This document shows positions 2,494-27,793 of a stretch of 27,793 bases of DNA, piece after piece. The DNA is from a virus: the IMG/VR virus record IMGVR_UViG_3300049845_000216, positions 1-27,793 of that record; one strand, given 5' to 3'. Numbering within the stretch: position 1 is the first letter of the stretch; every line of letters begins with the position of its first letter. The notes beneath the pieces were generated by a model. The model worked only from the letters and a program-made list of their open reading frames with translations, ran no database searches and had not been told where the DNA came from. A program made the position numbers and the translations under genes.

Positions 2494-2774
2494 TGGGAAT
2501 CGAAGTGATGTACCGGCACATCTGCGATGTGTGCTCCGCGCACGTCATGGACGAGGTATTCAAGGCTTACCCCAGTCCATTCGGTCCGATAGAGATACCG
2601 CCCCCGCAGTCCCGCAAGATATTCGGAGGCCGGGTGCTGTGCGAGCGGTGTTACTCCGTGCTGGAGAACGTTGCGGTTGCTATCGCACCCGGCGTGACCA
2701 ACACTACGGCGCAAGCTGCTCAAACTGCCGCGCCCGTTCAATCTTCATCTGCCGTATCTCCGAAAGCTGTTTAG
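2493..2774 (+). CDS. Zinc-ribbon-like small protein, 93 aa
   Basis: Two CxxC knuckles (C11/C14 in HICDVCSAH and C50/C53 in LCERCYSVL) about 35 residues apart form a probable zinc ribbon. The remaining C-terminal 35 residues are Ala/Ser/Thr/Gln-rich and look disordered. ATG 2493 is preceded by AGGAAG at 2479-2484 with an 8-base gap, so the start is well supported; ATG 2508 is a weaker alternative. It is the last gene of the plus-strand module. Its final 71 bases (2704-2774) overlap the end of the minus-strand giant gene, tail to tail. The low-complexity C-terminus lies partly in that overlap. The function is unknown; small zinc ribbons are common in phage replication modules. Confidence 0.7.
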   Translation: MGIEVMYRHICDVCSAHVMDEVFKAYPSPFGPIEIPPPQSRKIFGGRVLCERCYSVLENVAVAIAPGVTNTTAQAAQTAAPVQSSSAVSPKAV

Positions 2775-5700: not shown

Positions 5701-8700
5701 GGACACCGGCATGCTGCCGTCCATCATGTGCGCCAGCGACCCGAAGCGGGACATGATCGCTACGTGCAGAAGCTCGTGCAGGAATACTTCGTTGCTGATG
5801 TACCCCCGACCTCCGACACCGGGGCTGTAGCGCAAACGGATTTCACCGCGCTTCTGTTTGCCTGAAATCCACGCGGGCTCGATGTAGTGCGAGACGCGCC
5901 CGTACGTTGCGCCGCCGTGCCCGGTGCTGCCATACCCCAACGGGTCCACTGTCAGATTGAAGGCGTTGGGCTTCGTCGGCAGCAACAGCTTGATCAGCCG
6001 TGCCAGCGGGCGCAGTTCTTGTGGCCCGTGCTGGAGGAACGCATTGAGGGCTGCATGGATGCGCGTGGCTCCGTTGGGCGTGTCTGTGTTGGGCGGTAGC
6101 TCGCGCGACACCTGCATTGGGATAGCTGCGTCGAGTACACCCTCGGTGAACGGCTCAGACATGCCAACGGCTTTCGCCGCTTGCTGTGCAGCTTTCGTCA
6201 TCGTCGCGCGCACAGCTTGCGCAGCGGGCGTGGGAGCAACGGCGTTTTTGACGATCCCTACTTCATCGCTGAATCCACCACCGAAACCATCCGGCAGGAA
6301 CTCGGTGCCAAGCTCGCCTGTGCGCAGATCAGCGATGTCTTCTTCCGTTGCGCTCGCGCCGCGACGCCGCTCCTTGGCACGAGCGATGGCGTCCTCGGCC
6401 ATGCCGACTTGCCCGGTCTGCTCTTCGAACGCCTTCTGCAGCACGGCATCGTTCAACCGCGCTTTCTCGTTGAGCCTCGGAGAGCCCTTGTTCTCCTTGT
6501 ACCCTTCGGCAGCGACGCTGGTGATGAACGAATCCAGCTTGGTGCGCTTGGGCTTTTTCTGCCACAGCTTCTTGTCCGCTTCCGACTTGGGCTGGATCAA
6601 GCGTCCCGGGCGCGGCGCTGGCTTTTCTTCCTTCGGCAGCGGCAAGTCGAAGCGGCGCTTGATCTCCTTCGCTTCCTCGACTTTCTTTTCGATAGCTTGC
6701 GTGGCCTCGATACCAGCGGCGCGCATCTCCTCCTGCGCCTTTTTCAGCAGGCGCTCGATGTGGAAGTTGCCGACGTACGCCTCTTTGTCGTACACCCCGA
6801 TAGCAGCTTCTGCCGCGCGCATTTCAGTGAGCGCGGTTTCGTAGGCTTCGATCAGGGAATCCAGCTTCTCTTTCATGTCCGCAAACGGACGCAGCGCGAT
6901 CTCCGCCTTCTTGGCGTTGATTGCAGCCTGCCGCGCACGCGCTTTTGCTTCCGCGATGTTCTTGGCGTTGTCGTCCTGCGTGGTGAAGAACGCAGGTAGC
7001 CGCTTCTCAATCACCACTTCGGCGTCGAGCGTGACTTCGGCTTCCTTCCACAGGTCCGCCTGCTCCGCCAGTGCAAACACCTTGTTCCGAATCTCGGGAC
7101 CGTACTTGTCGCCATTGAGTAGTCCCGCCAGCCGCAGCATGGATGCCTTTGCTTTGCGGTAACGCGACAGGTGGTGCGCGATAGCGGTGCCCGCATCTGC
7201 CGTGTTGGCGGTGTACTTCTTCACCTCGGCAACGGTCTGCTCCAGTTGCTTCTTCTGCTTGGCGAAGCGCGCTTGGAACATCTTGATGTAGCTGCGGAAC
7301 AGTTCCGGCGTCAGCGCACCCGTGCCGCGATCACCAAACATCGTTTGCTGCTTGCCAGTGACTTCCGCTTCCAGTGCTGCCGTCGTGAACTCGGCGGCTT
7401 CCTGTTCCGGCGTCACCTCTTTCGGCGCGGGCGTGTAGTCGTACTTCTTGCCGAGTTCGAACGGCGTCTTGACGGTTGTCTTCGGGCCGCTTTCCGTGCG
7501 CAAGGCGCGATCCTGCACGCGCTCGATCTGTTCGAAGATCGCTTCACGCGCTGCCTTGAGCTTGCCGAACGGGCGCTCCATCGCAAGGTCGGAGTTGTCG
7601 TTCTTCGCGCCAGTCCACGGGCGCACAACAGACTTGCCTTGCGCGTTGGGGCCTTCGAAGTAGTTAAACAGCTTCTCGCTCAACGCTTCTTCGCGCTCCT
7701 CCAGCGTGCGCACAGCCTGCTCGGCTTCAACCCAGTCGGTGTACTTATGCCGCTCACGCGACAGCGTGCGCGTCAAGTCCCACACCTCATTACGGATGCG
7801 CAGGATGGCGTCCTGCACACGCTTCGCATGCTCTGGCGAACGGATCGCGCCCTTGTTCCACACGAACCGCTGCTTCGGCGTGGGCGACGGCTTGGCCGCT
7901 GGGTTGGTGGAGCGCAGCGTGAGTTCCGTGGCGAGCAGTTCGATCTGCTCCTTCACTTTGTTGTACTCGGTGCGCGTCAACGGAACCAGCCCCATCTGGT
8001 CCCGTTTCTCCACGATCTCGCGCAGCGCATAAGCGACGAACTTCGCACGCTCGCGCTTCACTGCATTCCACAGGTCGGCGCGCTTCAGCGGGGCGGTGAT
8101 CTCGGGCCGCGCTGCTGCCTTGTACGGATTGCGCGCTTCGACACCTTCGGGCGAGTCGTACTTCCAGCGTGATGCCGACCCGTTGTTGCGCAGATCAGTA
8201 AGCAGCATCGTGAGGTTGGCGTACGCGTCGTTCTTGCCGAGCTTGGCGCGCTCCACCAGCGCCGTGGGGCTGGCTACCTTGTTGCTGGTGACACGCCGTG
8301 GTAAATGGCTGCTGGGACCGGAAGCGCCCGCTGCACGCACAAGAGCGTCGGCGGTTTCGAGCGGAAGCTCCTGCTGCCCTTCAGCCGGGGCCACACCGTC
8401 CGCAGGGATGTTCTCGCGCGGGCGAGGGCTGACATCCTGCCCGGGGATCGCCGTGCGCCACTCTGCCAGTGCCTTTACTCCCGCAGGCGGGACCGGCGCA
8501 GCAGAGGCCACGGGCGCTGGCTGCTCGCCCAAGCTGGTAACCGCACGCGGCTGCTTGGCAGGCACAGGCATCGGACGCAGCGGCAGCGCCTCGCCCAGCG
8601 GCAAGTCCTGCTGCACACCCCCGGGAAGCTGCACGCCGAACTCAAAGTTCGGGCGCTCGGGCTGGCCTTCCCCCGGCTGTATCGGACGGTAGCTTGCGAC

Positions 8701-10392
8701 TTTGCCGTTAGGGCCGATGACCGGGGCCATCTGCTCGACAGGTGCGGGTAACTGCCCTGCGTCGCCCATGCCATGAAGCTGCCCCGCTTCGCGCTCGCGC
8801 TGCGATTGCGCGAGCCACATCTGGTACGCCTTCGGGTCGGTAAGCGACAGCATGTACGCGTCTTGCGCGTCGGCGGTCGGGTACTGCGGTGCGAATGCAG
8901 TGGGGTCGGGCACATCGACAGCCACGTCGCCATTGCGCGGCGGTGGTATCTCCACACCCGGCGCGAACATCTCGGGCGCTACCGGCTGCGCAGCTTTCTG
9001 CCTGCGCTTTGGCTCGGGCATCGCTTCAACAGGCGACGCGCCTTGGTAGGTGCGCTTGTCCAACTCTTCCGGCGTGGGGGACACCTTGGCGAACGGAGCC
9101 GCCGTGGCTTGCTCCAGCATGTACTGCTCGGGCGTCAGCTTCGCCACCCGCATGCGCTCGCCCAGCGTCTTGATCTGCTCCGTGATCGCCTTGTGCTGAC
9201 CCTGCAAGTCTGCGATGCGCTCGGCGTCGATGGGGTCCTTCGGGTTGAGCCCGCGCTGTTGCTGGCGCAGCGCCGTCTGCTGGGCCTTGAGCGCCTTGTG
9301 CTGCTCGATCAGGCCCTCCATGCTGCCTGCGTACGCCGGGTCCGCCTTGCGCGCCGCCTCGGCCTCCAACTGCTTGGCCGTCTCTTCTTCGTTCTTCTGG
9401 CGCTCGTTGGCCTCCACCTCATCCCGCGCGCTCGCGCGGTTCAGCGGCGACATCGCGCCACCGATGGATGGGCCGAGCAACGCAGCGGCGTAGCCCGCCT
9501 GCTGGTACTCCTTCCACGCATCCTCGCTGGCCAGCGGCAGGCCCGCCTGCGCCCGCTCGATCACCTGCTGGGCGATCTCCGTGGGAATCTCCGTCCCACC
9601 CGCCACCATGCCTCGGCCCACCGTAGCTCCGAGGCTACGCTGCGCTGTTGCCAACAACTCCTTCTCGGCCACCTTGGGGGCCATGCCGACGAAGCGCCCA
9701 AGGCCGAGCTTGCCCAACGCGAACACGTCGAGCCCTGCCTGCACAGCGCCCGCGCCTGCGGCTTTCATCAGGCTGGGGTCAACTGCTTCGCCGCGCTCGG
9801 CCTGTGCTTCCACCTGCCGCTCCAAGTTGGAGCCCGCCTGCATCGCGCCCGACACCATGCCCGCGCCTACCATGCCACCCACGGGACCCGCCGCAGCGGT
9901 GCCCGCCACGCCACCGACGATGGACGCCAGAATCTGCGGGATGTTCTCGGCAAGCACGTGCGGGAACTGGCGCATGACTTCGCGCGCTGCGGCCCCCACG
10001 CCCTCCTTCTCGTACACCTCCTTGATCTTCTCCAGATCGCCTTCGGAGGCGTACTTCTCCCCGATCTTCCGACTGCGTTCGATCCCCGCCTCGGCTGCGG
10101 TCTTCGAATCCCCGACCACTGACTCGCCCAGCGTCTGCAGCCCCGACAGCGCCGTCTCCACGCCCTTGCCGAACGATGCGGCCACACCCGTGCGCTTGGG
10201 CGGCGCTGGCGGCGGAGGCGGCGTGTAGCCCGCGTACGCGGCGTTCAGGATGTCGTCCATGCTCCGCCGCTGGCGCTGCGCGAACGCCTGCGGGTACTCG
10301 CTCCTCAAGCGCGCCAGCGCCTGAAAGCGCGGCACATCGTCGGGGATGCCTTCGACTACGGAGCCATTCGGAAGCTCAAGGGAGTAGGCCAT
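2704..10392 (-). CDS. Giant internal virion (ejection) protein with zincin-like and LPD38 domains, 2562 aa
   Basis: This is a very large virion protein, probably carried in the capsid and ejected into the host with the DNA. It opens with a short motif common at the start of phage internal proteins (LPNGSVVEGIPDDVP, residues 7-21). A Gly/Ala-rich membrane-active stretch follows at about 151-187. Long charged coiled-coil regions occur at about 330-415 and about 1000-1300. A zincin-type metalloprotease signature HELLH is at 1539-1543, with a downstream DPEEFLIRALTDP whose Glu 1623/1624 could be the third ligand. The C-terminal third (about 2190-2440, including IIPFFNAQLQGID and IPIPFEFG) matches my knowledge of large polyvalent protein-associated domain 38. 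I see no lytic transglycosylase. The start ATG overlaps the previous stop (TAATG) and has no Shine-Dalgarno, so translation is probably coupled. Protease activity is inferred from motifs only. Confidence 0.88.
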   Translation of the reverse strand: MAYSLELPNGSVVEGIPDDVPRFQALARLRSEYPQAFAQRQRRSMDDILNAAYAGYTPPPPPAPPKRTGVAASFGKGVETALSGLQTLGESVVGDSKTAAEAGIERSRKIGEKYASEGDLEKIKEVYEKEGVGAAAREVMRQFPHVLAENIPQILASIVGGVAGTAAAGPVGGMVGAGMVSGAMQAGSNLERQVEAQAERGEAVDPSLMKAAGAGAVQAGLDVFALGKLGLGRFVGMAPKVAEKELLATAQRSLGATVGRGMVAGGTEIPTEIAQQVIERAQAGLPLASEDAWKEYQQAGYAAALLGPSIGGAMSPLNRASARDEVEANERQKNEEETAKQLEAEAARKADPAYAGSMEGLIEQHKALKAQQTALRQQQRGLNPKDPIDAERIADLQGQHKAITEQIKTLGERMRVAKLTPEQYMLEQATAAPFAKVSPTPEELDKRTYQGASPVEAMPEPKRRQKAAQPVAPEMFAPGVEIPPPRNGDVAVDVPDPTAFAPQYPTADAQDAYMLSLTDPKAYQMWLAQSQREREAGQLHGMGDAGQLPAPVEQMAPVIGPNGKVASYRPIQPGEGQPERPNFEFGVQLPGGVQQDLPLGEALPLRPMPVPAKQPRAVTSLGEQPAPVASAAPVPPAGVKALAEWRTAIPGQDVSPRPRENIPADGVAPAEGQQELPLETADALVRAAGASGPSSHLPRRVTSNKVASPTALVERAKLGKNDAYANLTMLLTDLRNNGSASRWKYDSPEGVEARNPYKAAARPEITAPLKRADLWNAVKRERAKFVAYALREIVEKRDQMGLVPLTRTEYNKVKEQIELLATELTLRSTNPAAKPSPTPKQRFVWNKGAIRSPEHAKRVQDAILRIRNEVWDLTRTLSRERHKYTDWVEAEQAVRTLEEREEALSEKLFNYFEGPNAQGKSVVRPWTGAKNDNSDLAMERPFGKLKAAREAIFEQIERVQDRALRTESGPKTTVKTPFELGKKYDYTPAPKEVTPEQEAAEFTTAALEAEVTGKQQTMFGDRGTGALTPELFRSYIKMFQARFAKQKKQLEQTVAEVKKYTANTADAGTAIAHHLSRYRKAKASMLRLAGLLNGDKYGPEIRNKVFALAEQADLWKEAEVTLDAEVVIEKRLPAFFTTQDDNAKNIAEAKARARQAAINAKKAEIALRPFADMKEKLDSLIEAYETALTEMRAAEAAIGVYDKEAYVGNFHIERLLKKAQEEMRAAGIEATQAIEKKVEEAKEIKRRFDLPLPKEEKPAPRPGRLIQPKSEADKKLWQKKPKRTKLDSFITSVAAEGYKENKGSPRLNEKARLNDAVLQKAFEEQTGQVGMAEDAIARAKERRRGASATEEDIADLRTGELGTEFLPDGFGGGFSDEVGIVKNAVAPTPAAQAVRATMTKAAQQAAKAVGMSEPFTEGVLDAAIPMQVSRELPPNTDTPNGATRIHAALNAFLQHGPQELRPLARLIKLLLPTKPNAFNLTVDPLGYGSTGHGGATYGRVSHYIEPAWISGKQKRGEIRLRYSPGVGGRGYISNEVFLHELLHVAIMSRFGSLAHMMDGSMPVSSPEMQKALDQFKALYSEFTEQMRPDGPLRKAFNKLFPNMDEGAGHLLSVSLDEALRDPEEFLIRALTDPAFQKALAQVRYKGQSMLERIKAWVKEVLGFGEDAPSWLDAALIASYDVAQGLRNEEVDLSAPDRAGAISYQRDEQAFSQRLATKNAVASAAAQSGVRKLYPERQSLRSSARKNFLGYGLRTQYFDRWAPVVGIANKMMDALKATQMVYFVRMADRTNQMTAEAMTNGPVELVELPRKDGRVERMFQSAKGVAVRDIVKTLKGQDFKLWSSWMALKRAQATGKGLAALLGDGAPTLTPEEQQAILAEGDALPAFEIARQQYAKYNASLVKLMVDTGAISEKDANDMLSRDYIPFYRVDPNGDVRVMGEHPIKIGNVRDQADLARLVGSDKPLDDPFQNIATNTRIIMKLALQNEAAKSVAFTLKDLGLAEINNSNLRGRVEQGRNVIHFKWKGVDRTAIVNTGADSKYADIPSDLLVKGMEGIATTLPDMFRVLQVPAQFLRNAITLMPTYMFRQLIRDPMHAWLSTGMDFSRAAKGLTRVRALANHRDETGNLLRERGLVGGQVIQGNDEDMGRIMAQLHAGEGVIQQFHAKLQEYATASDAATRAAMYDDFKAKGLSDMEATLAAMDAINFATRGLSPTVHALNMIIPFFNAQLQGIDSVYRALNGQMPFNDKMKARQKLIQRAMMVAAGTTLYYSLVQDEDWYKNTPENVRLSNWLFKIPGVDEPIRIPIPFEFGLLFKALPETIYIASKNDKEADAAWKALGNMAANQLPGGSSFLIPAGAKPLIEKAANHSFFTGRDIVPGSLQGEDAPDQWTLNTTESAKALSSIYGGSPMHFENLVRGYTGPAGYAVLQLMDAFIQPNTSAPPDKPLSRTAIVGPLFQQVDGSAVINRAYEQVKKIEAAAERYRRANEQGREADALDTLSESGDLIGYKSAAGRFKQEMGKLTKLERIIHFDPRLSSEEKAKQLSEIRQMKIERARQFEQLAP

Positions 10393-15215: not shown

Positions 15216-15728
15216 TTAAATGGCTGTGTGGTCGTGCGACAGGTTGTAGTCAGCGGACACAGCGTAGCTGCCGCTGCCCGTATCAGTCACCGTACAGCGA
15301 ACCGTTGCGGTCCATGTGCCGTCTCCCGCCGTGCTGCGCACCGCGCACGTTGAAGCGGTCGTGCTGCCGGGGAAGGTGTACTTGCCGTTCGGGTCGGACA
15401 CTTCCGTCCACGCGTAGGTGAAGGGGCCAACGCCACCGCTCACCGACGCAGCCACCGTCTCCGTGGCGATGCACGAAGTTTGTCCCGGGGGAGTGTACGA
15501 GCAGGAGGTACTGCCGCTGCTGTAGGCGAGGCTTACCGTGTGCCCCTTTATTGCCCCGGCGAACTGGCTCAGATTCAGCCCTGACACCGTGGTCGAAATG
15601 CTCGCGTTCTGCGAAGGACCGTTGGTCACATACGCGCCGCCGCGCACATACTCCGACAGGCTGTGCGGAGCCGTGCCCCCGAACTCGGTGACGACAGACG
15701 ACATCGTGGCAGGAGTGGACACAGCCAT
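15216..15728 (-). CDS. Ig-like domain virion protein, 170 aa
   Basis: The N-terminal part has a motif set common in phage tail proteins: LSEYVRGGAYV (residues 24-34) and LSQFAGA (53-59). One Ig/PKD-like domain follows (about 71-165) with GPFTYAWTEV and ATVRCTVTDT, four cysteines (76, 86, 128, 145) and a β-rich composition. The same Ig unit is repeated five times in the gene at 20335-22080. Ig-like domains on phage virions are thought to aid weak binding to carbohydrates. Translation is coupled to the S74 fibre gene: TGATG overlap plus GAGG five bases before ATG. It is the gene directly after that fibre, so the two may form one receptor-binding unit. Confidence 0.8.
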   Translation of the reverse strand: MAVSTPATMSSVVTEFGGTAPHSLSEYVRGGAYVTNGPSQNASISTTVSGLNLSQFAGAIKGHTVSLAYSSGSTSCSYTPPGQTSCIATETVAASVSGGVGPFTYAWTEVSDPNGKYTFPGSTTASTCAVRSTAGDGTWTATVRCTVTDTGSGSYAVSADYNLSHDHTAI

Positions 15729-18301
15729 CAGTGCCTCATCTCCAGCGCGGCGATGCGCGCTTCAAGTTGCTTGATCGCTTCGTTGTGCACAGCGGTCAGC
15801 GGGGCGTAGTTGATCGACAGCAGCCCCTCGGCTTCCTTCACCAGTTCCGGCAGCACTTCTTGGAACTCCTGCGCGATGAAGCCCACGCTCTGCTTGTTCT
15901 GTGCCTTCAAGCGGAAGCGGCGTCCGTGCAACGCACGCACGATAGCCAGCGGATCATCGAAGCCGCGCACGTCATCCTTCAACCGGATGTCCGAGGGAAT
16001 CTGGAAGTCGCTGGCGTACAGCAGCGTGTAGGCATCGCCGCTCGTGTACACGTGCAGCCCGTTCGCGCCACGCACATGCTTGATGTAGTCCGCCGAGGAG
16101 CCGCCTGCGTGCCACGTGATGATCACGTTGCCCGACGAGGAGTAGGCTTCAAAGGCAGAGGACGAATAGCCTGTTTGCGAGTTGTACTGCGCGGACATCC
16201 TGCCTGCGGAAGCAACGATGTTCCCACTGTTGCAGGTGATCGAAGACGCAGAGACAAAAGCCCCATAGGCAGTCGTCGTACCGGCGCTCGAAATTCCCAG
16301 CCAATCGACAAACGTCTGCGTGGAGCCCGCAGTAACAGACGGCGCGCGTCCGATTGAGAAGCCGTCGTTTGCCGACGACAGCATCATTCGCCATCCGGCA
16401 GCAGTGGCGATTGACTTCCAGTCAGGCGTGCTGGTGTAGTACGAGTTCGAATAAAGCCACAGATTGCCGGTTGCGCTAGTCGGGGACATCAGCCCATCAC
16501 CGCCACCGCCGAACTGAACTCCAAAGTATCCCGTGTTCCACGCACTCGCCGTGCCCGCCCCGAGCACGACGTTCCCGGCTGCTCCAATCGTCATCCGAAG
16601 GGTGCCGTTTGTCCCGAATGTGATTCTTTCGTTGGTGGTGTTCCAGACGTAGAACCTGTCGTCAGCAGCACCATACCCGAGGTATCCCTTTTCCCCGGTG
16701 CTGTCGTAGAACGTGAAGTAGTTGTTGCCGCCGCCGCGCGTGCCGGTGTTCGACTTGATGGCGTGGGCCACGCCGCTTATCAACAACTGCCCAGTCAGCG
16801 TGCCACCCGTCAGCGGCAGGAAGCTGCCACCTGAAGGCGCAGCCCACGTGCCATCGGCGCGCAGGAAGTTCGTCGTGCCGCCACCGGACAACGGAGCAAG
16901 GCCAGCCTCGGTGCTGGTGAACAACGGGAACGTGAAGCCGGTGCCCGTGCTCGATGCGACCGCGCGAGTGCTCGCGGTGTAGCTGATGTTCGTCCCGCCC
17001 GCAGGCGCAGCCCACGTACCATCGGCGCGCAGGAAGTTCGTCGTGCCACCACCCGATGCGGGCGCGAGGCCCTTGAGTGTCGTGGTGAACGTGTTCAGCA
17101 TCGCCGTCGCTTGCGTGACGGTCAAGTCCTCGACGTTGCCCGTCGCGGCGGTGGTGCGTCCCTTGAACGTCGCCGTGGCCACCTGCGCGAGCATGGCGTT
17201 GGTGACCTTGTTCGCGCCGATGGCTGTCGTGATCGCCGTGGCACCCGTGCCGCTGATGTCGCCCGACAGCGTGATGCTCTGATTGGCCGTGAGGACCGCT
17301 ACGCTGTTGACAGTGAGCGCCCCGTACACGTCGAGGTCGCCAGTGTTGGTAACACGGAAAGCGTAATCCGGAGCAGTTGTGGCGTCGTTCTTTTCGCTAC
17401 GAAAGAAGTAGAAATTGCCATCGGAGGTAGCACCAAACGCGGCGTAGCGTCCTGTTCCGACAACCCCGGTGTCCATCACTACCACGCCACCAACCCCGAG
17501 ATTCAACTGCTGCGTCCAACCGCTGGTAGTGACGGCGGAGTTCACACCTACGTTAAGCAGCCCCGATCCAAACGAAGCATATTGATTGAAGGTAGAAACA
17601 CCACCCGAGCTAATTGCTATCCGAACATTTCCGCCTGTGGAGATGTTGAGGGCGTGGCTTGCTGCCAAATTCGACTGCGCCGCTTCGACCTGAACGAACA
17701 AGTATTTCGCCGTGTCGTTGTTGTACCAAGTCTGCGCCCACGCACCAGCGTGATTGCCCTGCACAACCGCGATTGCATCCGAGGCAATTGCTTGCGCATT
17801 GACACCCAACCTCCCAGTTAGCGTGCCACCCGACAACAGCAGCCAGCGTGCGTCGCCCTGCGTGTTGAAGTCGGTAGTCAGCCCATAGCCGCTGAGCGTC
17901 GTCGGCGTGCCGGTGATGTCACCCCACGCGTGCGTGTGCGAAGCCGCAGCAGCGCCGACCGTGTTGTACGACACCGTGACTGCGGACGCTCCGTTGAAGG
18001 ACGTGCCACTTGCCGCGCCTGCGCCGCCGTTGTTGAACGTGACCGAGTTCGTCGTGGTGACCGAGCCACCGCCGCCAGCCAGCCCCGCTACCTTCAGGAT
18101 GTTGCCATCGACCCAAACATCGCCATCGCGCAAGCCTGCGGACGCCGTGGGCAGCGTAGCGAGCGAGAAGTTCTGCGTAGCCACGTTGATGTGGCGCACC
18201 GACTCCAACTGCGTGAAGTGCGTGCGCAGCGACGCCAGCAGGCGTGACATGTACCCGAGGTTGTAGCTCTCGGGTGCGTCAGGCAGGCGCGGCGCGCTCA
18301 C
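15728..18301 (-). CDS. Tail fibre with C-terminal S74 intramolecular chaperone, 857 aa
   Basis: A trimeric-fibre type protein. It contains a Thr/Ser/Gly/Ala-rich shaft with GGTLTGRLGV and GGTLTGQLLI repeats and two copies of the phage fibre motif TTNFLRADGTWAAP at about 417-433 and 473-489. The last 88 residues form an S74 peptidase (endosialidase-type chaperone): SDIRLKDDVRGFDDPLAIV starting at Ser770, then SVGFIAQEFQEVLPELV and a terminal coiled coil KQLEARIAALE. In this family the SD-R-K motif serine cuts the chaperone off after trimer folding. The start is GTG 18301 in a GTGA overlap with the upstream stop, with AAGGA nine bases before. The protein probably recognises the host surface. 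Confidence 0.92.
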   Translation of the reverse strand: MSAPRLPDAPESYNLGYMSRLLASLRTHFTQLESVRHINVATQNFSLATLPTASAGLRDGDVWVDGNILKVAGLAGGGGSVTTTNSVTFNNGGAGAASGTSFNGASAVTVSYNTVGAAAASHTHAWGDITGTPTTLSGYGLTTDFNTQGDARWLLLSGGTLTGRLGVNAQAIASDAIAVVQGNHAGAWAQTWYNNDTAKYLFVQVEAAQSNLAASHALNISTGGNVRIAISSGGVSTFNQYASFGSGLLNVGVNSAVTTSGWTQQLNLGVGGVVVMDTGVVGTGRYAAFGATSDGNFYFFRSEKNDATTAPDYAFRVTNTGDLDVYGALTVNSVAVLTANQSITLSGDISGTGATAITTAIGANKVTNAMLAQVATATFKGRTTAATGNVEDLTVTQATAMLNTFTTTLKGLAPASGGGTTNFLRADGTWAAPAGGTNISYTASTRAVASSTGTGFTFPLFTSTEAGLAPLSGGGTTNFLRADGTWAAPSGGSFLPLTGGTLTGQLLISGVAHAIKSNTGTRGGGNNYFTFYDSTGEKGYLGYGAADDRFYVWNTTNERITFGTNGTLRMTIGAAGNVVLGAGTASAWNTGYFGVQFGGGGDGLMSPTSATGNLWLYSNSYYTSTPDWKSIATAAGWRMMLSSANDGFSIGRAPSVTAGSTQTFVDWLGISSAGTTTAYGAFVSASSITCNSGNIVASAGRMSAQYNSQTGYSSSAFEAYSSSGNVIITWHAGGSSADYIKHVRGANGLHVYTSGDAYTLLYASDFQIPSDIRLKDDVRGFDDPLAIVRALHGRRFRLKAQNKQSVGFIAQEFQEVLPELVKEAEGLLSINYAPLTAVHNEAIKQLEARIAALEMRH
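16836..16885 (-). repeat. 50-bp fibre motif repeat, copy 1
   Basis: Codes for the fibre motif TTNFLRADGTWAAP. It matches 17004-17053 at 48 of 50 bases. Confidence 0.85.
17004..17053 (-). repeat. 50-bp fibre motif repeat, copy 2
   Basis: Matches 16836-16885 with two differences. The copies are 168 bases apart (56 codons, in frame), a possible site for shaft-length change by recombination. Confidence 0.85.
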
Positions 18302-20149: not shown

Positions 20150-20338
20150 TCAGCAGTTGGAGCACGAGCCCGGTTCCGGAGGCAGCGGCGTACCGTTGAG
20201 CGTGGCCAGTTGCGCGTCCACGAGCTTCAGGATGCGGGCGCACTGCTCGCAGTACGGCGCAGCTTCGATCAGCAGTTGGCGCACGCGCTGCGCGTCGTCT
20301 GCGCTGAAGCCGAGGCCAAAGTAGGTTGGTAGGGTCAT
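20150..20338 (-). CDS. Cys-rich small protein, 62 aa
   Basis: Two CxxC pairs, C30/C33 (CEQC) and C59/C62 (CSNC, the very C-terminus), flank a helix and a Pro-rich linker, suggesting a zinc-binding or disulfide-linked small protein. The N-terminal half (FSADDAQRVRQLLIEAAPYC) is helical. It starts with an ATGA overlap with the Ig-array gene and ends one base before the next start. The nearest purine-rich site (GGAG) is too far upstream to be ideal, so coupled translation is likely. It is placed between tail genes; function unknown. Confidence 0.7.
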   Translation of the reverse strand: MTLPTYFGLGFSADDAQRVRQLLIEAAPYCEQCARILKLVDAQLATLNGTPLPPEPGSCSNC

Positions 20339-22080
20339 GGGTCGTACAAATGCTCCGTGTTGATGTTCACGTCGATGTACGTTGTAGCCGCTGTCGAATC
20401 CGTTACAGTGCAGCGATACACGCCATTAAAAACTCCATTCGCCGTGCTTCTTCGGAACTGCGTCGTTGCTGCCGAAGGCGACAGCACCGTGAAGGTGTCG
20501 CCACTCACGTACGTCCACGCATAGGTGAAGCCACCCACGCCGCCAGTGACGCTGACGGTCACACTGTTTGTTGTGGCCGTGCACGTAGCCCCCGGTGAAA
20601 AAAGTGCGCATAGCCCATACGCATCGCTGTCTTTGCTGGGCGTCATCGGCACATAGTTGTTGGTGTGCGTCGTGCTCACATACACATCGACCGTGGCCGT
20701 GCGGCTGGTGGAGTCCGTCACCGTGCAGCGATACCAGCCGCTCAACGTTTGCGTGCCGGTTGCCGTGCGCGAGAACGTCGTCGCCGCAGCAGAGGGGCTG
20801 TTCACCGTTGCCGTAGTGCCGCTCAAGTACGACCACGAGTAGGTGTATGGAGCGAGCCCACCGCTTACCGAAACCGTTGTCGTGCCGGTGGTCGCCGTGC
20901 AGTTGCCGCTAGTGTACGAACAGGAGCCGGAAGCATCGGCATCCCTGCTGACGCTGAGCGCCGTGTAGCTGTCGGTGTGCGTGCTCGTCACCGTGATGTC
21001 CGCCGTGCACGTGGTGCCGATATTGTCGGTCACGGTGCAACGGTAGGTGCCGCTGTAGACCGTCCCCGTAGTGGAGCCCGCCGCCGTCTTGCTGAACGTC
21101 GTGGTCGCCGCCGATGCGGAGTTGATCGTGAAGGTATCGCCCAACACCCGCGCCCACGCGTAGCTGTACGGAGCCGTGCCGTTGGCAGGCGTGACCGTCA
21201 CGCTGTTGGTGGTGGAGGTGCAGCCGTTGCCGTTGTTCGTGCTGCACGAGCCTGTAGCGTTGCCCGAGGCGCTGGCCGTGGGCGTCACGTAGGTGTTGGT
21301 GTGCGTCGTGTTGACCGTCACGTTCACCGTGGCCGTGCGCGCTTGGCTGTCCGTCACCGTGCAGCGGTAGACGCCCGAGTAAAGCTGCCCGCCGTTGGTG
21401 CCGCTCGCCGTGCGCGTGAAGGTCGTCGTTGCCGCCGTGGCGGAGTTGACCGTCGCGGTATCGCCGCTGATGTTGGTCCACGCGTAGGTGTAGGGGCCGA
21501 CGCCGCCTGAAGGCGTGATCGTCACGCTGCCCGTTGTGGCCGCGCAGTTGGCCGTGGGCGTGGCGTAGTTGCAAGTGCCCGAGACAGATGCCGCGCTGCC
21601 GGTGGCCGACAGGTTCGTCAGCGTGCTGGTGTGCGTGGTCGTGACCGTCACGTCGTTGGTGGCAGTGCGCCCGGTGGCGTCAGTCACCGTGCAGCGGTAG
21701 ACCCCTTGGTACTGCGTGCCACCGGCAGAGCCACCAGCCGAGCGCGTGAAGGTGGTCGTCGCCGCCGTGGGCGAGTTCACCGTGGCGGTCGCGCCGCTGA
21801 CGTAGCTCCATGCGTAGGTGAACGGCGCACGCCCGTTGGTCACCGTCACCGTGACACCGCTGGTGGTGGCCTCACAGTCCGTGGCAATGGCGGTGCTGCA
21901 CGAGCCCGACACGTCGCCCGAGTCGGACAGTTGCATCGCGGTATACCGGATATAGACGAGACGGGCCGAAACGCCGTCGTGCACATAGATGTAGTGCACG
22001 TCCCGCGTGGTCGTGGCATCGCGGATATGGACACCCGAGGGCGTCCGTGTCGTGCCGTCGCTGACCTTGGTGCTTTCCAT
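20335..22080 (-). CDS. Virion protein with five Ig-like repeats, 581 aa
   Basis: Residues 1-50 form a short β-rich head (IYVHDGVSARLVYIRY) of the kind seen on phage tail proteins. Five Ig/PKD-like repeats of 104-110 residues follow, each with a GSC...C pair, a TYAW or TYSW strand and a YRCTVTD strand; the RC cysteines are at 130, 240, 348, 452 and 557. Composition is Thr/Ser/Ala-rich with few charges, as expected for a secreted or surface β-protein. Such arrays are probably displayed on the virion and may bind cell-surface sugars. ATG 22080 directly follows the TAG stop of the fibre gene, in the same frame and without a Shine-Dalgarno, so it may be made by re-initiation or by readthrough as a fusion. 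Confidence 0.85.
   Translation of the reverse strand: MESTKVSDGTTRTPSGVHIRDATTTRDVHYIYVHDGVSARLVYIRYTAMQLSDSGDVSGSCSTAIATDCEATTSGVTVTVTNGRAPFTYAWSYVSGATATVNSPTAATTTFTRSAGGSAGGTQYQGVYRCTVTDATGRTATNDVTVTTTHTSTLTNLSATGSAASVSGTCNYATPTANCAATTGSVTITPSGGVGPYTYAWTNISGDTATVNSATAATTTFTRTASGTNGGQLYSGVYRCTVTDSQARTATVNVTVNTTHTNTYVTPTASASGNATGSCSTNNGNGCTSTTNSVTVTPANGTAPYSYAWARVLGDTFTINSASAATTTFSKTAAGSTTGTVYSGTYRCTVTDNIGTTCTADITVTSTHTDSYTALSVSRDADASGSCSYTSGNCTATTGTTTVSVSGGLAPYTYSWSYLSGTTATVNSPSAAATTFSRTATGTQTLSGWYRCTVTDSTSRTATVDVYVSTTHTNNYVPMTPSKDSDAYGLCALFSPGATCTATTNSVTVSVTGGVGGFTYAWTYVSGDTFTVLSPSAATTQFRRSTANGVFNGVYRCTVTDSTAATTYIDVNINTEHLYDP
20350..21930 (-). repeat. Five Ig-like coding repeats, about 312-330 bp each
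   Basis: Conserved cysteines of the YRCTVTD strand recur every 104-110 codons. At DNA level the strand coding YRCTVTD is nearly the same in each unit. A sixth, more distant unit lies in the gene at 15216-15728. Confidence 0.88.
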
Positions 22081-22972: not shown

Positions 22973-23506
22973 TCAGTCCTGTTTGCTCACGGAGCGCGCG
23001 TAGGTGCGGCAGAGGGCGAGTTCGTCGCGGAGGTCGTCAGCCGCTCGTCCGCTTTCTTCCGCCAAGCTATCAGCTTCTCCGAGTAGTACTGCGAGGGCTT
23101 CAACTCGGTGGTGAACATCCCCGCAGGTGGAGGAGGCACCTGCGGCGGCTTGCTGCTCAATGGCGGCGAGCTTGTTGCGCAGCCCAGTACCAGCAGCATG
23201 AAGCTGGCGAACAATGCCATCGCGCTGAGTAAGCGCAGCGAAGTACGCAGTTTCCATTCGTACACTGTCAGCCCGCCAGCGAGCTTCTGTCTCTCGTGCA
23301 TGTTGTTCTGCCTTTGCGAGTTCAGCGTTGAGTGTCGCCTGCTGCTGCGCGTAGTCGCGCTCCATCCGCGCGATCTTCCGATCCGCGAAGACTTTGTGTG
23401 CCCCCATCCCAATGAGGAAGAAGCAGAGCGCAAAGGCGAGGCCGATAAGGACCTTGGCGACCTTCTCTGTCGCCAGCCCCAGCAGCCACGGAGGCATCGG
23501 AATCAT
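22973..23506 (-). CDS. Rz: Inner-membrane spanin (Rz-like), 177 aa
   Basis: After a short N-terminus a single transmembrane helix (VLIGLAFALCFFLIGMGAH, about residues 19-37) is followed by a long periplasmic helix rich in Ala, Glu, Arg and Gln (ERDYAQQQATLNAELAKAEQ and onward), the usual build of an i-spanin. ATG 23506 is chosen because GGAG lies seven bases before it and it forms an ATGA overlap with the endolysin stop; a longer frame to 23575 lacks a start signal. With the nested o-spanin it should join inner and outer membranes and finish lysis of a Gram-negative cell. Position right after the endolysin fits. Sequence similarity is weak in this family, so the call rests on architecture and nesting. 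Confidence 0.85.
   Translation of the reverse strand: MIPMPPWLLGLATEKVAKVLIGLAFALCFFLIGMGAHKVFADRKIARMERDYAQQQATLNAELAKAEQHARETEARWRADSVRMETAYFAALTQRDGIVRQLHAAGTGLRNKLAAIEQQAAAGASSTCGDVHHRVEALAVLLGEADSLAEESGRAADDLRDELALCRTYARSVSKQD
22987..23301 (-). CDS. Rz1: Outer-membrane spanin lipoprotein (Rz1-like), nested in Rz in another frame, 104 aa
   Basis: Lies wholly inside the i-spanin gene in a different frame of the same strand. A hydrophobic signal (SLRLLSAMALFASFMLLVLG) ends in a lipobox LVLG before Cys41, and the mature part is Pro-rich (SSKPPQVPPPPAG), the signature of Rz1 o-spanins. ATG 23301 has AAAGG about nine bases before it; GTG 23265 would give a more usual signal length (Cys29) but has a weaker site. 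A longer upstream frame to 23433 is unlikely. The lipoprotein should be sorted to the outer membrane and bind the i-spanin C-terminus. The lipobox plus poly-Pro segment inside a spanin gene is hard to explain by chance. Confidence 0.88.
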   Translation of the reverse strand: MHERQKLAGGLTVYEWKLRTSLRLLSAMALFASFMLLVLGCATSSPPLSSKPPQVPPPPAGMFTTELKPSQYYSEKLIAWRKKADERLTTSATNSPSAAPTRAP

Positions 23507-23844
23507 GCGTGCTCTCCGCCGCGCGGAAGTTCGAAGTGAGGACCATCTTTGAACGTACTCCAGTCGCCGCCCCATGTGAGGGGCACGTTAAGTTCACCCG
23601 CCGCGAGCTTCATAGCGTCCGCGATCTTGTAGTACAGCGGCCAGTCCCACCGCACTTCACTCCCAACCTTCGCGGCCAGATCGACCGCGTGCCCTGTCAG
23701 ATGCCGCGAGTCCAGCGTGCGCGACGCCCCGATCTTCACCAACTCCCGCTGCCGCTCCAGCGTGCGCACACCCTCCGTGACGATGAACGGCACGGTCGTG
23801 ATCTCCGCAGCGCGCCGTACCACGGCAGCGAGGTCCGGATTCAC
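23503..23844 (-). CDS. Endolysin, M15-family peptidoglycan endopeptidase, about 113 aa
   Basis: A zinc peptidase of the VanY/T5-endolysin type that cuts peptide cross-links of the cell wall. Counting from GTG 23844, the motif SRHLTGHAVDL gives zinc ligands H48 and D55; DGPHFEL gives catalytic Asp100 and third ligand H103, spaced as in the family. EGVRTLERQRELVKIGAS is also typical. The start is uncertain: GTG 23844 lies one base after the stop of the previous gene with only a weak AAGG, while family members usually keep about 5-15 more residues, and here ARLLE just upstream looks family-like. GTG 23934 would give 143 aa but has no Shine-Dalgarno. No signal peptide, so a holin must release it. 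Ends in an ATGA overlap with the i-spanin. Confidence 0.88.
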   Translation of the reverse strand: MNPDLAAVVRRAAEITTVPFIVTEGVRTLERQRELVKIGASRTLDSRHLTGHAVDLAAKVGSEVRWDWPLYYKIADAMKLAAGELNVPLTWGGDWSTFKDGPHFELPRGGEHA

Positions 23845-23845
23845 C

Positions 23846-24145
23846 TCAAGAAGCCTTGCTTGGCACCGACTTGTTAGCGGGTGCCCGACGCTGGTAGGAC
23901 TTTCGGTGGTGCCAAACCTTGTAGGCGGTTCCACAGCCGAAGAGGGCGGCGGCGACGGAGAAGAGGACCATTTCCGGGGGAACCCAAGCCAAGTGGTAAA
24001 CGCGGTGAATAGCCGAGACACTTGTAATCCCCATTCCAATGAGGCCGAGATGCTGCGGCCAGTTATCTTGGTAGCGCGGGCTGAACAGCCCCGCCAAACA
24101 CAGGACGAAGACAAGGAAGAAGCTGGCCATCGTGAGCAGCGTCAT
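23846..24145 (-). CDS. Lysis-cassette membrane protein, possible second holin or antiholin, 99 aa
   Basis: Three hydrophobic segments are seen: about 3-21 (LLTMASFFLVFVLCLAGLF), 32-48 (HLGLIGMGITSVSAIHR) and 56-75 (EMVLFSVAAALFGCGTAYKV). A basic, probably cytoplasmic tail (WHHRKSYQRRAPANKS) follows. GGAGGAG stands eight bases before ATG 24145, a very strong site, and the ATG overlaps the preceding stop (ATGA). It lies directly before the endolysin. The topology and position suit a holin, antiholin or related pore protein; I cannot tell which of the two neighbouring membrane proteins sets lysis timing. Confidence 0.75.
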   Translation of the reverse strand: MTLLTMASFFLVFVLCLAGLFSPRYQDNWPQHLGLIGMGITSVSAIHRVYHLAWVPPEMVLFSVAAALFGCGTAYKVWHHRKSYQRRAPANKSVPSKAS

Positions 24146-24783: not shown

Positions 24784-25392
24784 TCAACGGTACGCATCCT
24801 TCTGGACAGACGCACCGAGTGCTTTCAATTGCCCAAGTGCTTCAACGTAGCGGTCTTCGTACATCTTCAGCACGTCCGCTTCGCCTTTCATAAACACGTA
24901 CGCATTGATGAGGGAGCCGTACAGCAGCACCGTCTCAAAGTTGTTGCCAAGCCACGACGTGCCCGTGTCCACGATGGACGCCGGGAAGCCCATGTAGCGA
25001 GCCTCCAGCGCGTAGGCCACGTCGGGTGTCGGTGCCACGATGTACTGCGCTTCGTTGAACACCGCGTAGAACTGCGGCACCGCCGTCGCCCCCTCGCTGG
25101 GGTACGCCTCACGCATGAACGACACATCCTTGTTCAGCAGGAACGTGTGCGAGCCCGCCTGCACAACGGCAAGCGACAGCGGTGACAGGAAGCCGGAAGG
25201 CAGCGCCACGTACGGACTCCCCACGCTGCACACCATCGACGCCAGCTTGCGCGTGGGAGGAATCTGCGCATCGAGGTAAATGCGCTGCTCAGCCTGTCGA
25301 ACAAAGCCGGGGATATTCGACACGAACGTCGTTTCCGAGTTCTCTGTCGTCTCCTCGATGACCGTGCCAAGTTGCGCGTACGTGAGCGCCAT
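24784..25392 (-). CDS. Head-tail adaptor protein, SU10-like, 202 aa
   Basis: The opening LTYAQLGTVIEETTENSETT and then FVSNIPGFVRQAEQRIYLD is characteristic of the phage adaptor family typified by the podovirus SU10 adaptor, which docks under the portal ring and connects capsid to tail. The rest alternates β-strands (SPYVALPSGFLSPLSLAVV) with a helical C-terminus (MKGEADVLKMYEDRYVEALG), as expected. ATG 25392 is preceded by AAAGG. It sits two bases after a small basic protein gene and is followed by the lysis cassette. Recognition is by motif memory, not by a search. Confidence 0.82.
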   Translation of the reverse strand: MALTYAQLGTVIEETTENSETTFVSNIPGFVRQAEQRIYLDAQIPPTRKLASMVCSVGSPYVALPSGFLSPLSLAVVQAGSHTFLLNKDVSFMREAYPSEGATAVPQFYAVFNEAQYIVAPTPDVAYALEARYMGFPASIVDTGTSWLGNNFETVLLYGSLINAYVFMKGEADVLKMYEDRYVEALGQLKALGASVQKDAYR

Positions 25393-25541: not shown

Positions 25542-25854
25542 TTGTGATCGTGCCTCCAAGTGGTGAGATGACATCAATGACGCCTGCCGACACGGCAGTG
25601 CGTAGCCTGTCCGGAGCCGTGATGACGCGACTGTCATCGACGTTATCCGGACGCGGATTCTTCAGCGCCTCGACATCCACTACCGGGCGCTCTCCAACAA
25701 AATGCTGCGGCTGGTCGGGCACCCAGCAACTCGGGCACGCAAGCGTGGCCGTCGTCACGCGCTTGACCACGAGCGGCTTCAAGCGGAAGAGCTTGTAGCG
25801 TTGCCCGCAGACATCGCACAGTCCGACTGCCTTGCGACCGATGGCGTAGGTCAT
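25534..25854 (-). CDS. Zinc-ribbon protein in the connector region, 106 aa
   Basis: Two knuckles, C13/C16 (GLCDVCGQRYKL) and C40/C43 (ACPSCWVPDQPQHF), separated by a basic strand segment, form a typical zinc ribbon. The opening MTYAIGRKAVGLCDVCG with a later CPSCW and PDQPQHF is a pattern I know from small proteins encoded beside adaptor genes in many tailed phages. The C-terminal half is Pro/Asp-rich and probably extended (RPDNVDDSRVITAPDR). It starts in an ATGA overlap with the connector gene and ends overlapping the basic peptide gene. A structural role is likely; the exact function is unknown. Confidence 0.78.
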   Translation of the reverse strand: MTYAIGRKAVGLCDVCGQRYKLFRLKPLVVKRVTTATLACPSCWVPDQPQHFVGERPVVDVEALKNPRPDNVDDSRVITAPDRLRTAVSAGVIDVISPLGGTITNG

Positions 25855-26552
25855 GGCCGTCCGATCCGCCCGATGCGTGGTGTGATGCGAAACGGCACAC
25901 GCTGGCTGTCCTCTTGCGCGGCCAAGGTGAACTGCCGCTCGTACTCGGCCTGCAGCCCGTTGAGGCGGCTGCGCGCTTCCGGGTCAGGCAGCTTCATGGC
26001 CACGTAGTACGCCAGCCCCGCGACCAGCGCCGGGAAGTAACGCGGCGGCATGTCGGGCGTCGAAGTGGCCACACCCGGGTCCTCGATGCGGCGCATGCGC
26101 CAGTACACGAAGCGGAAGCTGTTGTCCTTCGGCACCGGCCAGAAGATCACGCTCGGCGCGTCACGCTTGCGGTCCACGAAGAACTGGCTGGGACGACCCT
26201 GCTGCAGCTTGTTGGGGATGGTGCTGTAGATGCTGAAGCCGATGCGCGCGATGGTGGCGTCGTGCTGGGATGCCTGCACGCCGTGGTTGGTGCGCAGCGT
26301 TCCTTCCAGCAGATCGATGGTGTCGGATGGCAGGGCATACGACGCCGTGCCAGCCACCAGCGAGATCGCGCCCTCCTCCACCGTCCACAGGTGGATGCCC
26401 CGGTTGGCCCACTCCAGCGTGAGCAGCGCCATGCTGCGGCGCGCGGTGCGCAAGTGGTAGCCGGTGCGTAGCTCCGTGCCCGCGCGTTCGAACGCCTCTT
26501 CCGCAAGGTCCGTGAAAGAGAGCGTGAATGCGGTTGTCCCAGACGTTGCCAT
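25851..26552 (-). CDS. Phage connector/adaptor-type tail protein, 233 aa
   Basis: A mostly helical N-terminal half (FTLSFTDLAEEAFERAGTEL) and a β/helix C-terminal half with RPSQFFVDRKRDAPSVIFWP, a FVYWRMRRIEDPG strand and FPALVAGLAYYVAMKLPDPE. This string of motifs recurs in podovirus-like neck proteins encoded beside SU10-type adaptors; I take it to be the second connector component (compare tail tubular A or P22 gp4-like proteins). The ATG directly follows the TAA of the previous gene, in frame, with no clear Shine-Dalgarno. The end overlaps the zinc-ribbon gene by 4 bases. The structural class is likely, the precise name uncertain. Confidence 0.78.
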   Translation of the reverse strand: MATSGTTAFTLSFTDLAEEAFERAGTELRTGYHLRTARRSMALLTLEWANRGIHLWTVEEGAISLVAGTASYALPSDTIDLLEGTLRTNHGVQASQHDATIARIGFSIYSTIPNKLQQGRPSQFFVDRKRDAPSVIFWPVPKDNSFRFVYWRMRRIEDPGVATSTPDMPPRYFPALVAGLAYYVAMKLPDPEARSRLNGLQAEYERQFTLAAQEDSQRVPFRITPRIGRIGRP

Positions 26553-26857: not shown

Positions 26858-27793
26858 TCAAGCAACCTCAAGTTGACTGTTCAACGCGTCCCACACCACC
26901 AGATCGCCTCCTACCTCAAGGCGGTCCCCGATGTTCATGCCCCCGATGGCTAGGCCATCTGTCTGACCCCCGCCGCCCAGAATCGCCGCCCGCACACCGC
27001 TGGCCGTGGCCGCGATGGGGGTCGTCCCGATCTCCGGAGTGATCGTCTGCACCGACGCCTGCACACCGCTGGCCGTGGCCTGCACCGGGCTGGTCAGGAT
27101 GATCGTGCTCACCAGCATCGGCACGCCGCTGGCCGTGGCCTGCACCGGGCTGGTCGAAATCGTCACGTTGGTGGAGACAGCCGCCCCCACGCCGCTGGCC
27201 GTGGCGCTGACAGGCGCGGTCGCCACCGTCTCGTTCTGGCTGACGAGGGCCTGCACACCCGAAGCGGTCGCCGCCACCGGGGAGCCGCTGATTGTCGGGT
27301 TTAGGGCAACAGCGCAGGAAACACCACTGGCAGTCGCCGTGGCGACGTTGCCGAGGATCGTGATGTTGGTGGCGACGTTGGCCGCGACCCCGGAGGCGAA
27401 GGCAGTCGCCTCCCACGTGTCGATCCGGACGTTGTAGGTGATGGACGCCTGTACCCCGCTGGCGGTGGCCGCGACGGGGGTCGTGCTGATCGTGACATCC
27501 GAACCCTGCTGAACACTGGCCTGCACGCCGCTGGCGGTGGCAGCAACCGGCGTGGTTTCGACCGTGACGTTGCTTGCGACGTTGGCCGCAACGCCGCTGG
27601 CAGTCGCCTGCACTGGCGTGGTTTCGACCGTGACGTTAGTGGCGACGTTGGCCGCAACGCCGCTGGCAGTCGCCTGCACTGGCGTGGTTTCGACCGTGAC
27701 GTTAGTGGCGACGTTGGCCGCAACGCCGCTGGCCGTGGCGCTGACAGGCGCGGTCGCCACCGTCTCGTTCTGGCTGACGAGGGCCTGCACACC
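26858..27793 (-). CDS. Protein made of tandem 22-residue repeats (5' end missing)
   Basis: The frame is open at the right edge and the repeat pattern continues across it (GTG 27790 is preceded in frame by Gly, as inside a repeat), so the gene starts outside the window. The visible 310 residues hold 12 repeats of 20-24 residues with consensus VxAxVxxNVTIxTTPVxATASG, then a non-repeat end (GGMNIGDRLEVGGDLVVWDA). The repeats are Ala/Thr/Val/Ser-rich, almost without charge, and predict short β-strands, perhaps a stalk or solenoid. I do not recognise the family. As the gene precedes the connector genes, it may be a capsid-decoration or head-fibre protein; this is inference. It is followed after 23 bases by the basic GC-tailed protein. 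Confidence 0.75.
   Translation of the reverse strand, partial: GVQALVSQNETVATAPVSATASGVAANVATNVTVETTPVQATASGVAANVATNVTVETTPVQATASGVAANVASNVTVETTPVAATASGVQASVQQGSDVTISTTPVAATASGVQASITYNVRIDTWEATAFASGVAANVATNITILGNVATATASGVSCAVALNPTISGSPVAATASGVQALVSQNETVATAPVSATASGVGAAVSTNVTISTSPVQATASGVPMLVSTIILTSPVQATASGVQASVQTITPEIGTTPIAATASGVRAAILGGGGQTDGLAIGGMNIGDRLEVGGDLVVWDALNSQLEVA
27189..27259 (-). repeat. 71-bp direct repeat, copy 1
   Basis: Identical over 71 bases to 27723-27793, 534 bases away. 534 is a multiple of three, so recombination between copies would remove or add 178 residues without breaking the frame. Confidence 0.9.
27581..27712 (-). repeat. Perfect 66-bp tandem duplication
   Basis: Bases 27581-27646 and 27647-27712 are identical, and the identity runs about 20 bases into the next unit. 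Perfect identity suggests a recent expansion or active homogenisation of the array. Confidence 0.9.
27723..27793 (-). repeat. 71-bp direct repeat, copy 2 (reaches window edge)
   Basis: Identical to 27189-27259. The match runs to the last base of the window, so the true repeat may be longer. Confidence 0.9.

What the first reader, a model, noticed from the sequence alone, without database searches (positions are those of the whole stretch)
26858..27793. Unrecognised 22-residue tandem-repeat protein upstream of the connector genes
Twelve visible repeats with consensus VxAxVxxNVTIxTTPVxATASG are almost free of charge and end in a non-repeat cap. I know no phage family with this signature. Position before the neck genes hints at a capsid-decoration or head-fibre role. 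The gene continues past the right edge, so the full repeat number is unknown.
Basis: partly seen in the sequence, partly recalled or inferred. Interest (0 to 1): 0.68.

Follow-up and report, generated by a model that had tools for sequence, protein, structure and literature searches.

The report
Phage 22-residue repeat rod protein
A short-tailed phage fragment carries the cut-off end of a gene for a rod-like protein built from twelve or more near-identical 22-residue units, probably a fibre or spacer on the virion near the head-tail junction; related repeats turn up in several unrelated phages, often with a sugar-binding-type domain, but nobody has shown what they do.

Summary
A minus-strand frame (26858-27793, open at its 5' end) encodes twelve tandem repeats (22 aa, some 20-24), only 10 charged residues in 266, then a 45-residue cap. 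The downstream neighbours include two SU10-type adaptor genes. The window is an IMG/VR fragment that breaks inside the gene. Two close relative contigs extend the picture: one carries the same repeat (about 26 copies or more) and the same cap, after a non-repeat N-terminal stretch; the other keeps the cap but has a different repeat (GNLTITGQAPT). So the cap is the constant part and the repeat is exchangeable. The ATASG repeat also occurs in at least five other phage contigs, fused to or beside a LamG-type domain in four. In one (L106) it lies between the major capsid gene and an SU10-type adaptor, as expected for the window. Best reading: an elongated beta-rich virion rod, a head or neck fibre or spacer with variable copy number. 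The fold is unproven: AlphaFold2 gives a low-confidence beta-solenoid, a known artefact for repeats; Pfam's NosD match only modestly exceeds permuted controls. No virion data exist. The look-alike downstream GTGAVGT repeats failed a homology test.

The parts
26858..27793 (-). Repeat gene, 5' end cut by the contig edge; 311 codons seen
   Evidence: open frame; period 22 far above shuffles; dN/dS between units 0.36
26996..27793 (-). Twelve tandem repeats, consensus VxAxVxxNxTIxTxPVxATASG
26861..26995 (-). Non-repeat C-terminal cap (...TDGLAIGGMNIGDRLEVGGDLVVWDALNSQLEVA), conserved in L009 and L008
26553..26834 (-). Next gene: small basic protein (MSEEFVPKRRPTDP...GWGKARKRGC), kept in the same place in L009 and L008
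25851..26552 (-). Head-tail adaptor, SU10_adaptor (PF24175), 47% identical to the adaptor of phage DSL-LC04
25534..25854 (-). Small 'NPRPDN' protein, counterpart of the N-terminal part of CRP-902 gp53, which in CRP-902 carries a different repeat array
24784..25392 (-). Second SU10_adaptor match

Best explanation
The gene encodes an elongated, nearly uncharged, beta-rich virion protein: a rod of 22-residue units (twelve seen here, about 26 or more in the closest relative) ending in a conserved 45-residue C-terminal cap. I infer that the cap, the part that stays constant when the repeat is replaced, is the piece that docks or closes the rod at the particle, in the head/neck region encoded between the capsid and adaptor genes. 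The repeats hold a distal N-terminal domain away from the surface (LamG-type in other phages; not identified in the closest relative). Rod length can change by recombination between near-identical units. Shown: the repeats, the constraint, the conserved cap with exchangeable repeat, the recurrence beside or fused to LamG-type domains, and the gene position in relatives. Inferred: presence in the virion, the docking role of the cap, surface or glycan contact, and the fold.
For: Repeat, low charge, cap and coding constraint. The cap is conserved while the repeat is swapped in L008, 22-24 aa GNLTITGQAPT units. The same repeat with more copies in L009, after a non-repeat N-terminal stretch. The ATASG repeat in L110, L094, L100, L106 and L108: profile similarity above all 20,000 column permutations for four of the five and above all but 34 for L108. 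It stays significant pooled (8 of 50,000) when the columns fixed by my search pattern are left out. LamG-type domain fused (L110, L100) or encoded by the adjacent gene (L106, L108). Position: between a major capsid gene and an SU10-type adaptor in L106, and among portal, scaffold and capsid genes in L094, L100 and L110. In adaptor relatives of the window, beta-rich decoration-like genes fill the stretch between capsid gene and adaptor. Alternating conserved positions 1/3/5 and 16/18/20/22 fit strands with one buried face. AF2 regular three-strand coil and NosD match, both weak.
Against: No virion proteomics or micrograph. The capsid gene is not on the window or on its two closest relatives, so the slot is inferred from more distant phages. 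L173 carries a short related array at the end of a structural block, with no capsid gene in view. The N-terminal domain of this protein is not seen. AF2 confidence is low (mean pLDDT 59.5) and AF2 over-predicts solenoids for repeats.
Confidence: 0.5

Rival explanations
1. The same rod is part of the tail or neck appendage (tail fibre or whisker) rather than of the head, and presents a receptor-binding domain.
For: It lies directly before adaptor and tail genes; many phage fibres have repeat shafts. In adaptor relatives, proteins with another 22-aa repeat lie downstream of the adaptor among tail genes, and CRP-902 has one right after its adaptor.
Against: In L106, L094, L100 and L110 the ATASG repeat genes sit on the head side, with portal, scaffold and capsid genes. 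The window has a separate tail-fibre gene at 15728-18301.
Confidence: 0.25
2. The repeats form a homotrimeric fibre shaft (triple beta-spiral type) instead of a monomeric beta-solenoid.
For: Repeats of 15-22 residues with alternating hydrophobics and a conserved turn with Gly/Pro are what such shafts use (own knowledge); the conserved ATASG and TxP could be the turns.
Against: Pfam NosD (a right-handed beta-helix family) matches at 30.9 bits against 21.3 for the best of eight column-permuted controls; the best-superposing solved structures (rmsd 3-4 A) are right-handed beta-helices. Both are weak, and no trimer prediction could be run here.
Confidence: 0.25
3. Not a structural rod: a dispensable, fast-changing filler or a non-virion protein whose repeats have no fixed fold.
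For: Composition is very simple (A, T, V, S); homologous slots in relatives hold other genes; repeat type and number vary between close relatives.
Against: Strong constraint on specific positions across units and phages and repeated association with LamG-type domains and head genes.
Confidence: 0.15
4. The repeat number and order here are partly an assembly product.
For: The contig ends in an exact 71-base copy of an internal unit and holds a 92-base exact duplication; the contigs of both close relatives also break in this gene.
Against: Internal units differ in many synonymous and amino-acid positions, and the diverged homologue L009 has the same array and cap.
Confidence: 0.3

Closest known systems
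SU10_adaptor-bearing structural module of HTVC023P / CRP-901 / DSL-LC04 / Pag-Yong1 phages
   Same: Homologous adaptor, 34-47% identity over more than 90% of its length, followed by a related 'NPRPDN' gene
   Different: In the five records read, the genes between capsid gene and adaptor are others; no ATASG repeat there
Decoration proteins and head fibres of tailed phages (Hoc, pb10, N4 gp17, phi29 gp8.5; reviewed in PMC7602432)
   Same: Works-like: elongated accessory protein, some built of repeated domains, on the capsid; some help attach to the cell
   Different: Those use Ig-like domains or coiled coil; here a 22-residue repeat without detected homology to them
NosD-type right-handed beta-helix repeats (PF05048)
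   Same: Similar repeat length; Pfam match above its cut-off
   Different: No NosD context; the match is only about 10 bits above the best permuted control; TIGR04247 NosD not met (12 of 300 bits)
GTGAVGT 22-aa repeat proteins downstream of the adaptor in relatives and CRP-902 gp53
   Same: 22-residue period, similar composition, same phage group
   Different: Column-profile comparison is no better than permuted columns (6952 of 20,000 reach the score); different gene slot

Membership tests
NosD beta-helix (PF05048) | Profile match above gathering score | tested here: met
   33.5 and 35.0 bits, cut-off 23.6
NosD beta-helix (PF05048) | Match not explained by composition and period | tested here: inconclusive
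   30.9 bits real; 21.3 for one of eight column-permuted controls, another control passed an unrelated family's cut-off
NosD copper maturation protein (TIGR04247) | Score above the curated cut-off | tested here: not met
   12 bits of 300
Phage head fibre / decoration protein | Encoded with capsid genes | tested here: inconclusive
   met in L106, L094, L100, L110; for the window itself the capsid gene lies off the contig
Phage head fibre / decoration protein | Present on the capsid of the virion | not testable with these tools
   no virion data for any carrier
Beta-solenoid protein | Parallel coils of about 22 residues | tested here: inconclusive
   AF2 mean pLDDT 59.5, three strands per coil; no Foldseek match with E under 1 in the PDB; best VIA-align Z 13.0, rmsd 3.6 A to tapirin, a middling value for repeats; AF2 bias, PMC11795689
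ATASG 22-aa repeat group (this work) | Column pattern shared with L110, L094, L100, L106, L108 | tested here: met
   L108 marginal on the stricter test
GTGAVGT 22-aa repeat group | Column pattern shared with the window's repeat | tested here: not met
   best-register score reached by 6952 of 20,000 permutations

The most novel reading that the evidence does not exclude
A mobile 22-residue beta-rod module, not catalogued in PHROGs or NCBIfam, is used by unrelated tailed phages as a length-adjustable spacer on the head or neck. It carries lectin-type heads, and its unit type can be swapped on a constant docking cap.
Probability: 0.3. Interest if true: 0.55.

Novelty: new variant of a known kind. 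Interest (0 to 1): 0.36.

Why it matters
If the rod is a virion fibre, the constant cap with exchangeable, copy-number-variable repeats would be a simple genetic system to see how phages tune fibre length and reach. It would also give a profile to annotate a group of repeat genes now called hypothetical. Nothing here yet shows more than a structural role.

Tried and rejected
Direct protein searches of the phage collection with the window protein, L009, L008, L110, L100 and L094 found nothing; BLAST's low-complexity filter may hide such arrays. The search for the cap found only the two known relatives, and that for L009's N-terminus only itself. My first idea, that the GTGAVGT repeats downstream of the adaptor are the same repeat, looked good by eye but failed a column-permutation test; rejected as shown homology. 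The pattern scan of 84,980 species genomes gave 53 hits; none scored convincingly with the repeat profile (best E 0.012). SipA hits are composition matches. L009's N-terminal stretch reads like an Fn3/Ig-type domain by eye, but a fold without alignment was poor (pLDDT 40), PHROGs gave only a weak 'major tail protein' match (E 4e-4) and PDB sequence hits were unrelated; left open. BFVD matches were weak (best E 0.025). The L008 versus window repeat comparison had only two in-register units and was not significant. (an earlier form of the permutation test) failed for a script error and gave only the column counts.

Full report
WHAT IS THERE. The minus-strand frame 26858-27793 is open to the contig edge and encodes twelve repeats followed by a 45-residue cap. 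Identity at lag 22 is 0.54 (lag 44, 0.43; lag 66, 0.35) against at most 0.23 in 2000 shuffles. Only 10 of 266 residues in the repeats are charged. Among 27 in-register units from the window and L009, A18, A20, S21 and G22 never vary, V1, A3, N8, T10, I/V11, T13, P15, V16 and T19 rarely, and most positions between them vary freely; codons differ even at invariant positions and the median dN/dS is 0.36. So this is a constrained protein and not a DNA repeat that happens to be open.

ASSEMBLY CAUTION. The window is a complete IMG/VR record of 27,793 bases, classed linear. Its last 71 bases copy 27189-27259 exactly and another 92-base exact duplication lies at 27576-27667 / 27642-27733. The contigs of both close relatives also start inside this gene. 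Repeat arrays break short-read assemblies, so the number and order of units here should be treated as provisional.

CLOSE RELATIVES. A search with the adaptor next door (25851-26552) found two contigs at 90% identity and then a gap to 61%. L009 (IMGVR_UViG_3300045961_000269) has a 707-residue, also 5'-cut, homologue with about 26 units, an odd insert of about 50 residues, a non-repeat N-terminal stretch and the same cap. L008 (IMGVR_UViG_3300037882_000759) has the cap, but its repeat reads GNLTITGQAPTIRTPQTVQGTT, 22-24 residues, and one extra gene lies before the shared downstream genes. The cap is therefore the constant part and the repeat the exchangeable part.

NEIGHBOURHOOD. The genes after the array are a small basic protein, an SU10_adaptor (PF24175), a small 'NPRPDN' protein, a basic protein and a second SU10_adaptor. 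Adaptor relatives with names include Phage DSL-LC04 (47% identity), Roseobacter phages CRP-901/902, Pelagibacter phages HTVC023P/027P and Planktothrix phage Pag-Yong1. CRP-901/902 and HTVC023P share a structural module (PMC10149686). In CRP-902, Pag-Yong1, DSL-LC04 and MW202675 and in many metagenomic relatives the order is GroES-like gene, scaffold-type genes, major capsid protein, a cement-type or small protein, variable small genes, adaptor. HTVC023P has more genes between capsid and adaptor. The window's repeat gene would fall in this variable stretch. None of the five named records read has the repeat there.

WIDER FAMILY. A DNA pattern for ATASG twice at 66 bases, scanned over the viral collection, and a profile of the repeat, found arrays in L110, L094, L100, L106 and L108, pooled consensus FTANVDQNLTIAGSLGTATASG. 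Profile similarity to the window/L009 repeat exceeds all 20,000 column permutations for four and all but 34 for L108. Because the pattern itself fixes columns 18-22 and 1, I repeated the test on columns 2-17: pooled 8 of 50,000 permutations, L094 4, L110 13, L100 249, L106 419, L108 1891. So L110 and L094 are firm, L100 and L106 good, L108 marginal on that stricter test. In L110 and L100 the array is fused to a LamG-type domain and followed by a charged C-terminal tail; in L106 and L108 the LamG-type domain is the gene just before. The Pfam LamG match is above cut-off only in L108 (E 6e-10), below it in L110 (E 2.5e-4); L100 and L106 are linked to L108 by local matches ending in NPWxxFAP.

POSITION IN THOSE PHAGES. 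In L106 the order is major capsid protein (Phage_capsid_4, 47% identical to that of L011, an adaptor relative of the window), small genes, LamG-type gene, repeat gene, further genes, SU10_adaptor. In L094 the array lies just before a portal-type gene, with scaffold, capsid and SU10_adaptor genes following; in L100 and L110 it lies between portal and capsid/scaffold genes. This is the best evidence for a head-side role and is still only gene order.

FOLD. AlphaFold2 with ten aligned sequences gives three short strands per 22-residue coil, mean pLDDT 59.5, 62-77 in the first 90 residues and near or under 50 in the cap. Foldseek finds no PDB match with E under 1; VIA-align gives Z 13.0 at rmsd 3.6 A over 215 residues to tapirin, and similar Z to left-handed helices only at rmsd about 10 A. 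[quoted passage not shown] Pfam's NosD, a beta-helix family, scores 30.9 bits on the real array; of eight arrays with columns permuted in the same way one scores 21.3 with NosD and another passes an unrelated family's cut-off. The match is modest support for a beta-helix and no ground for calling it NosD.

A LOOK-ALIKE. About thirty of 85 adaptor-relative loci, and CRP-902 gp53, carry proteins with GTGAVGT-type repeats, 22 residues in nearly all (20 in gp53), downstream of the adaptor; those read have GWGxGxWG-type N-termini or W-rich C-termini. They share period and composition with the window's repeat, but the best-register profile score is reached by a third of permuted profiles. I do not claim common origin.

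MECHANISM. Most likely the protein is a virion rod: the cap docks it or closes it, the array spaces it out, and an N-terminal domain not present in this fragment does the contact. At about 4.8 A per coil, if it is a solenoid (inference), twelve units would be some 6 nm and 26 some 12 nm. Near-identical neighbouring units (two are identical over 66 bases) make length change by recombination easy. Not shown: presence in virions, orientation, fold, ligand.

VERDICT. A real, constrained and unannotated repeat protein; ordinary in kind (phages have many repeat fibres), unusual in the exchange of repeat type on a constant cap and in recurring across phage groups with LamG-type domains.

Noticed in passing
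L010 3931-4779, L024 4507-5346, L029 11283-12269, L063 10693-11770, L080 3074-4510 and others; CRP-902 gp53 (L002 8681-9607): Widespread unannotated phage proteins with 22-aa GTGAVGT-type repeats downstream of the adaptor, mostly with GWGxGxWG N-termini and W-rich C-termini; no NCBIfam match for L029's protein and no Pfam match for gp53.
   Followed up: partly
22973-23575 and about 23000-23433 (-): Rz-like spanin gene with a lipoprotein-type Rz1 (..LGCATSSPPLSSKPPQVPPPPAGMF..) nested in another frame, next to an M15-type peptidase gene (23503-24114, PF13539); same arrangement in L009.
   Followed up: no
2704-10392 (-): 2562-residue protein with an LPD38 domain (PF18857) near its C-terminus, probably a large internal virion protein.
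   Followed up: no
20335-22080 (-): 581-residue protein made of PKD/SprB-type repeats (PF22352, PF13573), a second repeat protein of the same phage, conserved in L009.
   Followed up: no
25851-26552 and 24784-25392 (-): Two SU10_adaptor-family genes in one phage with no BLASTP similarity to each other.
   Followed up: partly
L110 6368-6781, L173 7571-8053: A GNAT acetyltransferase gene directly follows the repeat gene in two unrelated contigs.
   Followed up: no
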